A stretch of 23,048 nucleotides of DNA from a virus. Under the pieces are notes generated by a model. The model had not been told where the DNA came from, searched no databases, and worked only from the letters and a program-made list of their open reading frames with translations. Of this stretch, positions 2,928 to 3,180 are shown one piece after another. The stretch is from positions 1-23,048 of IMG/VR virus record IMGVR_UViG_3300005100_000001; one strand, given 5' to 3'. The translations under genes and the position numbers were made by a program. Each line of letters opens with the position of its first letter. Within the stretch, counting starts at the first letter, position 1.

Positions 2928-3049
2928 GTACCTGTAGTTCAATGGTAGAACGTTAAATTTCCATCTTCGTTTGTACTCCTTCGGGCTGTGTAGAAAATGG
3001 TTACTTCGCTTCAGACGAAAAGATATTGGTTCGAATCCAATCAGGTACG
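2928..3049 (+). tRNA. Intron-containing tRNA with deduced anticodon UCA (reads UGA), or tRNA-like RNA
   Basis: The acceptor stem GTACCTG (2928-2934) pairs perfectly with CAGGTAC (3042-3048), followed by G73. U8, a four-pair D stem (GTTC/GAAC), A14, G18G19, A21, and a T arm ATTGG-TTCGAAT-CCAAT are all present; A15 and U48 can form the Levitt pair. Removing 2953-3003 leaves stem CTTCG/CGAAA (one C-A mismatch at 27-43) around the seven-base loop CTTCAGA, with U33 and anticodon TCA at 3011-3013. No CCA is encoded. The D arm resembles that of glycine tRNAs, but identity cannot be decided. As transcribed, 2963-2973 can also pair with 3012-3024, an 11-bp stem with an AA bulge. This second fold would suit a tRNA-mimicking Y RNA for the neighbouring Ro protein. 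Confidence 0.7.
2953..3003 (+). other. 51-nt intron-like insert at tRNA position 26/27
   Basis: The insert contains CCAT (2961-2964) pairing with ATGG (2997-3000) around a 28-nt core (2967-2994). This core is identical at 25 of 28 positions to the core of the insert in the next tRNA. It includes a C(UUCG)G tetraloop-like element. The base after the insert begins CTTCG, as in the second tRNA. I find no bulge-helix-bulge motif, no group I 5'-exon U and no group II GUGYG start. Boundaries are inferred from restoring the cloverleaf. Confidence 0.55.
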
Positions 3050-3056
3050 TCAAAAA

Positions 3057-3180
3057 GCAGGAGTGGCTCAGTGGCAGAGCACCAGGAATAACTGCCTGCA
3101 ATCGTTTGTTCTCCTTCGGGTTGCGTAGATTGCAGATACTTCGAACCTGGGTGTCGGTGGTTCGAATCCACCTTCCTGCG
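3057..3180 (+). tRNA. Intron-containing tRNA-Arg (anticodon UCG), or tRNA-like RNA
   Basis: Acceptor GCAGGAG (3057-3063) pairs with TTCCTGC (3173-3179; one G-U), followed by G73. The D stem GCTC/GAGC, U8, A14, G18G19, A21, and T arm GGTGG-TTCGAAT-CCACC are consensus; G15 and C48 can form the Levitt pair. Anticodon stem CCAGG (3082-3086) pairs with CCTGG (3146-3150). If 3087-3138 is removed the loop is CTTCGAA: C32, U33, anticodon UCG, A37, A38, with a five-base variable loop. Read without removal, the loop would start AA and lack U33, so the insert must be excised for a working tRNA. The gene lies seven bases after the first tRNA and 29 bases before the Ro-like gene. Confidence 0.75.
3087..3138 (+). 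other. 52-nt intron-like insert at tRNA position 31/32
   Basis: CTGCAAT (3096-3102) pairs perfectly with ATTGCAG (3129-3135) around the conserved 28-nt core (3102-3129). In the first tRNA the same position is occupied by CCAT/ATGG, so sequence differs while pairing is kept. Core differences between copies are three single bases. The 3' flank is CTTCG in both tRNAs even though the insert sits at different tRNA positions. Typical archaeal endonuclease geometry is not visible at these junctions. Confidence 0.6.

What the first reader, a model, noticed from the sequence alone, without database searches (positions are those of the whole stretch)
2928..3180. Two tRNAs with homologous ~51-nt inserts at different positions and no bulge-helix-bulge
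Both RNAs carry all tRNA consensus positions, including matched Levitt pairs (A15-U48 and G15-C48). Normal anticodon loops appear only when 51 or 52 bases are removed. The inserts share 25 of 28 core bases. Each core is flanked by a stem that differs in sequence but keeps pairing (CCAT/ATGG and CTGCAAT/ATTGCAG), which is covariation. Insertion sites differ (26/27, 31/32), but each is followed by CTTCG. The junctions fit neither the usual archaeal endonuclease motif nor group I or II introns. A new mobile mini-intron, or RNAs using the insert as a separate functional arm, would both be new.
Basis: partly seen in the sequence, partly recalled or inferred. Interest (0 to 1): 0.85.

Follow-up and report, generated by a model that had tools for sequence, protein, structure and literature searches.

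The report
Viral tRNAs carrying a Ro60-binding arm
Two tRNA-shaped genes in what is probably an archaeal virus carry an extra arm that is not an intron but most likely the docking site for the Ro60 (TROVE) protein encoded right beside them, which makes them Y RNAs with the strand order of a true tRNA instead of the rearranged order known from bacteria.

Summary
Two tRNA bodies (2928-3049, 3057-3180) each hold a 51/52-nt insert. Twenty-nine bases downstream a TROVE/Ro60 protein starts (3210-4733). The insert plus the following "UACUUCG" is the Ro60-binding arm of prokaryotic Y RNAs: GGCGUAG-[8 bp]-UUACUUC paired with [8 bp]-GUUUGUUCCC. That motif lies beside TROVE genes in most of 153 viral loci examined. 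There the strands run in the opposite order: the RNA ends sit at the base of the Ro60 arm, and the tRNA-like part, if present, is a closed, circularly permuted tRNA (YrlA type). In the window the Ro60 arm is closed by a small hairpin and the acceptor stem is open, as in a real tRNA (7/7 pairs in each). The same open-acceptor form occurs in about ten other TROVE viruses, including cultured crAss001 and halovirus HGTV-1 (annotated there "tRNA-Asp + intron"); three encode CCA. The arms covary. No valid bulge-helix-bulge was found. The open form is scattered on the TROVE tree, so it probably arose repeatedly, perhaps from tandem Y RNA arrays. Expression, Ro60 binding and function are untested. New variant of a known kind; the methanogen host is inferred from one homologous gene.

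The parts
2928..3049 (+). Open-acceptor tRNA-Y RNA 1 (whole RNA): acceptor 2928-2934/3042-3048, D stem 2937-2940/2948-2951, T stem 3025-3029/3037-3041, G73 at 3049
   Evidence: Rfam tRNA 50.8 bits; custom model R1 117.6 bits (training member); stems checked base by base
2961..3008 (+). Ro60-binding arm of RNA 1: stem 2961-2968/2993-3000, GUUUGUACUCC-UUCG-GGGCUGUGUAG closing hairpin, conserved UUACUUCG 3001-3008
   Evidence: same motif as Y RNAs beside other TROVE genes; covariation
3005..3019 (+). Small hairpin TTCG-CTTCAGA-CGAA, in the place of an anticodon arm (loop triplet UCA)
   Evidence: 4/4 pairs; perfect 5-bp versions at the same place in L045, L088 and L109 (sequences)
3057..3180 (+). 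Open-acceptor tRNA-Y RNA 2 (whole RNA): acceptor 3057-3063/3173-3179, D stem 3066-3069/3077-3080, outer stem at anticodon-stem position 3082-3086/3146-3150, T stem 3156-3160/3168-3172, G73 at 3180
   Evidence: Rfam tRNA 47.2 bits; R1 108.4 bits (training member); stems checked; this fold is the MFE of the RNA
3096..3143 (+). Ro60-binding arm of RNA 2: stem 3096-3103/3128-3135 (8/8 pairs), GUUUGUUCUCC-UUCG-GGGUUGCGUAG closing hairpin, conserved AUACUUCG 3136-3143
3210..4733 (+). TROVE / Ro60 (Rsr-like) protein, 507 aa from ATG 3210 (ORF tool start GTG 3201), with vWA MIDAS motif DVSGSMS
   Evidence: Pfam TROVE 7.6e-22 and vWA_Ro60 1.1e-6; phrog_850 7.4e-52; PDB profile matches to 9l5y/9kop TROVE proteins, 1yvp Ro60, 2nvo Rsr
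1401..2888 (+). Terminase large subunit, upstream neighbour
   Evidence: Pfam Terminase_3 1.2e-17; best named phage matches are haloarchaeal tailed viruses
5735..7144 (+). Portal-like structural protein; its homologue directly follows the terminase gene in virus vir524, without the tRNA-Y/TROVE cassette
   Evidence: only phage match: vir524, host Methanomicrobiales, 36% identity, 6e-73; gene order; 'portal' is inferred from position

Best explanation
The two RNAs are Y RNAs that partner the TROVE/Ro60 protein encoded just downstream. Each keeps a complete tRNA body with an open 7-bp acceptor stem, and the Ro60-binding arm is built in at the anticodon arm. Shown by sequence: the arm is homologous to the Ro60-site module beside other TROVE genes; its stem covaries; the acceptor ends pair within each RNA and not with the neighbour; the cassette sits next to TROVE in distant viruses. 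Inferred: the transcript is trimmed at both ends by the host's tRNA-maturation enzymes; the arm stays in the RNA and docks on the rim of the Ro60 ring; the tRNA body sticks out as a handle that either brings Ro60 to an RNA-handling enzyme (PNPase in the known bacterial case; a different partner may be needed in an archaeon) or lures tRNA-attacking nucleases. The topology is the circular permutation of bacterial YrlA, probably produced by a shift of phase within tandem Y RNA arrays.
For: TROVE gene starts 29 nt downstream. The 3' half of the arm (TAG-8 nt-NTACTT type motif) occurs 296 times on the gene strand of 153 viral TROVE loci against 62 on the other strand, concentrated in the kilobase before TROVE; 116 of these have a pairing partner strand against 22 in swapped controls. 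Canonical copies have the window's letters in the other order. Ten open-acceptor RNAs align well; 94% of structure cells pair against 70% shuffled, 19 of 24 pairs change on both sides, including all 8 pairs of the Ro60 arm. Acceptors 7/7 within each window RNA, 3/7 for the permuted alternative. Further open-acceptor copies: L018, L029, L045 (2), L088 (2), L103, L115, HGTV-1, with near-perfect L109 and L112, and crAss001. CCA encoded at the 3' end in L018, L088 and L109. Of 16 viral contigs found blindly with the arm pattern, the three whose match lies in Y RNA context also encode TROVE; the other 13 match inside what looks like coding sequence and lack TROVE.
Against: No expression or binding data. 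Rfam YrlA does not recognise them (13.3 bits, cut-off 69). The MFE of RNA 1 alone does not form the Ro60 arm, although D, T and acceptor stems form, and the MFE of L088 and L103 also differs from the consensus. RNA 1 has a C-A mismatch in the 8-bp stem. Ro60-site identity rests on homology to Y RNA genes, not on a solved complex.
Confidence: 0.88

Rival explanations
1. The inserts are tRNA introns removed by the archaeal splicing endonuclease, giving two normal tRNAs (loop triplets UCA and UCG).
For: The probable host is an archaeon; HGTV-1's homologous RNA is annotated 'tRNA-Asp + intron' near RtcB; deleting 51/52 nt leaves plausible anticodon loops.
Against: BHB candidates are at chance level and none removes the insert. 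Insert positions differ while the insert sequence is conserved. The same module exists in RNAs with no tRNA exons around it and in phages of bacteria, which lack this endonuclease. The supposed exon bases CTTCG belong to the module.
Confidence: 0.04
2. A new mobile mini-intron that has copied itself into two tRNA genes.
For: Two similar inserts at two positions.
Against: All copies found in Y RNA context sit beside a TROVE gene. No group I/II or other intron family in Rfam. The arm stem covaries between copies.
Confidence: 0.02
3. Dual-purpose RNAs: true translating (chargeable) tRNAs that also carry a Ro60 arm, so that Ro60 can be loaded on, or respond to, tRNA in translation.
For: Complete acceptor, D and T arms with Levitt pair; encoded CCA in three relatives; perfect anticodon hairpins in L045 (UUU), L088 (AUG, with an eighth G-1:C73 acceptor pair as in tRNA-His) and L109 (GCU).
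Against: RNA 2 and L018 have no separate anticodon hairpin; a ~50-nt arm at 26/27 or in the anticodon arm should block ribosome entry (inference). RNA 1's loop would read UGA.
Confidence: 0.1
4. They are processed from tandem transcripts at the Ro60-arm ends like ordinary YrlA, and the open acceptor is only apparent.
For: In tandem arrays both readings can be drawn, and L045 pairs 6/7 in the permuted reading.
Against: In the window the permuted reading pairs only 3/7, and each arm is closed by a short CUCC-UUCG-GGG hairpin that leaves little room for ends. Several relatives are single units or encode CCA.
Confidence: 0.04

Closest known systems
YrlA-type bacterial Y RNA (Rfam RF02553; tRNA-like Y RNA, crystal structure 6CU1)
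   Same: Encoded beside a TROVE/Ro60 gene; Ro60-binding stem; D and T arms forming a tRNA-like domain
   Different: YrlA is a circular permutation of tRNA: its ends form the Ro60 stem and the acceptor-like stem is closed by a loop (PMC11472068, PMC8394870). Here the acceptor stem is open and the Ro60 stem is closed by a hairpin. No significant RF02553 score
Simple hairpin Y RNAs beside phage and Bacteroidota TROVE genes
   Same: Same Ro60-site motif (L007, L016, L018, crAss001)
   Different: No tRNA body; strands of the site in the opposite order
HGTV-1 'tRNA-Asp + intron' (KC292026, gene 136)
   Same: Open-acceptor tRNA body with a ~50-60-nt insert ending in TTACTTCG, 2.8 kb from a TROVE gene; R1 83.3 bits
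   Different: Annotated as an intron-containing tRNA; arm sequence more divergent. HGTV-1 was used in building R1, so its score is not independent
Archaeal intron-containing tRNAs
   Same: tRNA body interrupted near the anticodon arm
   Different: No bulge-helix-bulge; insert is conserved and tied to TROVE

Membership tests
Y RNA (Ro60-associated RNA) | Encoded next to a Ro60/TROVE gene | tested here: met
   TROVE at 3210-4733; association recurs
Y RNA (Ro60-associated RNA) | Conserved Ro60-binding stem motif | tested here: met
   Motif shared with Y modules of other TROVE loci; stem covaries. That this motif is the Ro60 site follows from published Y RNA work, not from a test here
Y RNA (Ro60-associated RNA) | Physical binding to Ro60 | not testable with these tools
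   Needs a binding assay
YrlA (RF02553) | tRNA-like domain with D and T arms | tested here: met
YrlA (RF02553) | Circularly permuted: RNA ends in the Ro60 stem, acceptor-like stem closed by a loop | tested here: not met
   Within-RNA acceptor 7/7 and 7/7; permuted pairing 3/7
YrlA (RF02553) | Rfam gathering score 69 bits | tested here: not met
   13.3 bits, and for a fragment spanning both RNAs
tRNA | 7-bp acceptor, D and T arms, Rfam gathering score | tested here: met
tRNA | 5-bp anticodon stem with 7-nt loop in the unspliced RNA | tested here: not met
   RNA 1 has a 4-bp hairpin next to the arm; in RNA 2 the 5-bp stem encloses the arm
Archaeal tRNA intron | Bulge-helix-bulge at the exon-intron junctions | tested here: not met
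   2 and 4 candidates against 2.2 and 2.8 in shuffles; none removes the insert
Group I / II or other catalogued intron | Match to a family in Rfam 15 | tested here: not met
   Only tRNA reaches threshold

The most novel reading that the evidence does not exclude
A distinct viral class of 'Ro60-tRNAs': RNAs matured at both ends like tRNAs, with CCA and possibly aminoacylated, that permanently carry a Ro60 dock, letting a virus attach a Ro60 ring to whatever handles tRNA (nucleases, ligases, synthetases), for example as a decoy against tRNA-cutting defences. The switch between permuted and open forms has happened many times.
Probability: 0.3. Interest if true: 0.8.

Novelty: new variant of a known kind. 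Interest (0 to 1): 0.62.

Why it matters
Bacterial Y RNAs have been described as circularly permuted tRNA mimics. An un-permuted form with an open, in some cases CCA-bearing, acceptor stem beside the same Ro60 gene suggests how Y RNAs and tRNAs convert into each other through tandem arrays, and predicts that some Ro60 RNAs are handled as real tRNAs. It offers cultured test cases: crAss001 of Bacteroides intestinalis and halovirus HGTV-1. It also warns that some 'intron-containing' viral tRNAs are mis-annotated Y RNAs, and it would extend Ro60/Y RNA systems to viruses of methanogens if the host assignment holds.

Tried and rejected
Close-relative search with the window TROVE protein and an exact search for the insert core in IMG/VR found nothing; alignment-based searches worked. 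No DNA-level relative in named phages. My first geometric scan used a faulty D-arm pattern and my first motif control a wrong Z pattern; both were corrected, and the faulty ones are not used. BHB, group I/II introns and mobile intron rejected. ARAGORN 'intron' calls in Y RNA arrays are mostly artefacts of neighbouring units (L049, L074: the permuted reading pairs as well or better). Cellular TROVE loci (80, mostly Bacteroidota, nearest to the window protein) gave permuted units only; apparent 6/7 open pairings in Chryseobacterium come from repeated acceptors whose permuted partner pairs 7/7. The AlphaFold job for the TROVE protein did not return in time, so no fold search was made; identity rests on Pfam and PDB profile matches. 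The key Y RNA papers (Chen 2013, 2014; Wang 2018; Sim 2018, 2020) are not in the held library or could not be found there, so I could not check whether open-acceptor Y RNAs have been mentioned before; seven searches of the held library showed none in titles, abstracts or the passages read.

Full report
What is there. Rfam's tRNA model matches 2928-3049 and 3057-3180, each with a long insertion. Every stem was checked base by base: acceptors 7/7 in both (P about 0.001 for random 7-mers of this window), D stems 4/4, T stems 5/5, insert cores 25/28 identical, inserts 51 and 52 nt. The stems flanking the core are 8 positions long, CCATCTTC/GAAAATGG (7/8) and CTGCAATC/GATTGCAG (8/8).

The missing clue. 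The open reading frame that starts 29 bases after the second RNA is a TROVE/Ro60 protein: Pfam TROVE 7.6e-22 and Ro60 vWA domain, phrog_850 7.4e-52, and profile matches to solved TROVE, Ro60 and Rsr proteins in the PDB. In bacteria Ro60 (Rsr) binds Y RNAs, one type of which (YrlA) contains a tRNA-like domain (PMC8394870, PMC7790460). That suggested that the inserts are Ro60-binding arms rather than introns.

Test against other TROVE loci. I collected 80 + 80 viral TROVE loci from IMG/VR (partly overlapping), 80 cellular loci and named phages. Next to TROVE the same module recurs: one strand GGYGTAG-[8 nt]-NTACTTC, the other [8 nt]-GTTTGTTCCC. In 153 viral loci the first strand occurs 296 times on the gene strand against 62 on the opposite strand and 65-78 in shuffles. 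It is concentrated in the kilobase before TROVE, and 116 copies have a complementary second strand (7/8 or more) against 22 on average, 35 at most, when the second strand is taken from another locus. Most copies run in the canonical order, with the TACTTC strand first. They are simple hairpins (for example L007, L016) or YrlA-type RNAs in which T arm, closed acceptor-like stem and D arm sit between the two strands. A geometric scan found 74 such permuted units in 58 viral loci. This agrees with published descriptions of YrlA as a circular permutation of tRNA (PMC11472068).

The window's RNAs are the reverse topology. Their Ro60 strands come in the order second-first and are joined by a CUCC-UUCG-GGG hairpin, and the tRNA ends are open. 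The permuted alternative, pairing the 3' acceptor strand of RNA 1 with the 5' strand of RNA 2, gives only 3/7. The same open-acceptor form, with 7/7 acceptor pairs, occurs in L018, L029, L045 (two), L088 (two), L103, L115 and HGTV-1, and with 6/7 in L109 and L112/L113. It also occurs in the cultured gut phage crAss001, about 270 nt downstream of its TROVE gene gp96: L265 4477-4620 with acceptor GGAGGGA/TCCCTCC, and, by direct reading, a second copy at about 4732-4872 with GGGGATG/CATCCCC. L018, L088 and L109 encode CCA after the discriminator base, which suggests tRNA-like 3' maturation.

Structure support. MAFFT aligns ten open-acceptor RNAs cleanly. For the structure with acceptor, D, Ro60-arm and T helices, 94.2% of cells pair (70.1% in shuffles; 38-47% when slid by one to three columns), 19 of 24 pairs have changes on both sides, and all 8 pairs of the Ro60 arm do. 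The structure was drawn from one member (RNA 2), which favours it somewhat. Sequence relatedness is not controlled by the shuffle, but the slide control keeps it. A covariance model scores the window RNAs at 117.6 and 108.4 bits (both were in its training set). It recovered L088 copy 2 (87.8), L112 (77.9), L115 (60.8) and crAss001 (68.0), which were not in the training set. The best cellular locus scores 62.9 and pairs only 5/7 in the open reading, so scores of about 60 overlap between the two topologies and acceptor pairing is the deciding test.

Why it is not an intron. Strict bulge-helix-bulge candidates are as frequent as in shuffled sequence, and none removes the insert. The bases CTTCG, which looked like a shared 3' exon start, are part of the Ro60 motif. 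The module also occurs in RNAs without tRNA exons. HGTV-1's 'tRNA-Asp + intron' annotation is probably the same kind of RNA; its arm is the most divergent, so I hold that with moderate confidence.

Two sub-types. In RNA 1 the arm sits between positions 26 and 27 and is followed by a small hairpin where the anticodon arm would be (TTCG-CTTCAGA-CGAA). L045b, L088a and L109 have perfect 5-bp/7-nt anticodon hairpins there (UUU, AUG with an extra G-1:C73 pair, GCU). In RNA 2 and L018 the anticodon stem itself carries the arm. Anticodon-like hairpins after the TACTTC strand also appear among permuted phage Y RNAs (L006, L012, L014), so they are not specific to the open form.

Evolution. On a FastTree of 170 TROVE proteins the nine loci with open-acceptor RNAs that could be placed need nine changes, seven forced by well-supported branches. 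Repeated switching, loss or exchange of cassettes would all give this. A tandem array of permuted units already contains the open reading, so a shift in which acceptor strands match is enough. This is inference; the tree is of the protein, not of the RNAs.

Host. The terminase is closest, at low identity, to haloarchaeal tailed viruses. The portal-like protein has a single match among named phages, vir524, a virus assigned to Methanomicrobiales (36%, 6e-73). In vir524 the homologues of terminase and portal are adjacent, with no TROVE or tRNA-Y between them, so the cassette looks like an added module. A methanogen host is likely, not proven. The window's TROVE itself is about as close to Bacteroidota proteins (40-43%) as to most viral ones; its best viral match is 45% (L103).

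How it probably works. By the known bacterial model, the Y arm docks on the Ro60 ring and the tRNA-like part is an outward handle; in Deinococcus the Y RNA tethers Ro60 to PNPase (PMC7790460, PMC8394870). Here the handle is a complete tRNA with an open acceptor, so it should be a substrate for tRNA-processing enzymes and CCA addition. A tether to an RNA-degrading or RNA-repair enzyme, or a decoy for tRNA-cutting nucleases (an idea raised for YrlA in PMC7790460), are the two most plausible uses. If the host is an archaeon without PNPase, the tether would need another partner. None of this is shown here.

Limits. No expression or binding data; the structure prediction did not return; the main Y RNA papers could not be read, so prior mention of open-acceptor Y RNAs cannot be excluded.

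Noticed in passing
L265 (crAss001, MH675552) 4300-4875: Unannotated stretch downstream of TROVE gp96 in the cultured crAss001 phage holds a simple hairpin Y RNA and two open-acceptor tRNA-Y RNAs.
   Followed up: partly
L003 1971-2102 (HGTV-1, KC292026 gene 136): The annotated 'tRNA-Asp (gtc) + Intron' looks like an open-acceptor Y RNA: TTACTTCG motif and CGCTTC/GAAGCG stem, with TROVE and RtcB nearby.
   Followed up: partly
L006 3762-3829, L005 3128-3195: Annotated tRNA-Thr and tRNA-Gln upstream of TROVE in a Xanthomonas phage and CcrColossus overlap permuted YrlA-type RNAs, so these annotations are probably wrong.
   Followed up: partly
window 2889-5734 against L252 (vir524) 10538-13473: The TROVE/tRNA-Y cassette lies between terminase and portal-like genes that are directly adjacent in a related methanogen virus.
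   Followed up: partly
L088 4088-4215: One tRNA-Y has an AUG (His) anticodon loop together with an extra G-1:C73 acceptor pair and encoded CCA, the identity features of tRNA-His.
   Followed up: no
L018 3968-5555: The TROVE gene of this contig appears broken into shorter frames although an intact tRNA-Y with CCA lies downstream.
   Followed up: no
window 9854-10750: Weak encapsulin-like (Linocin_M18) match of a protein that may be the HK97-fold major capsid protein; no relative among named phages.
   Followed up: no
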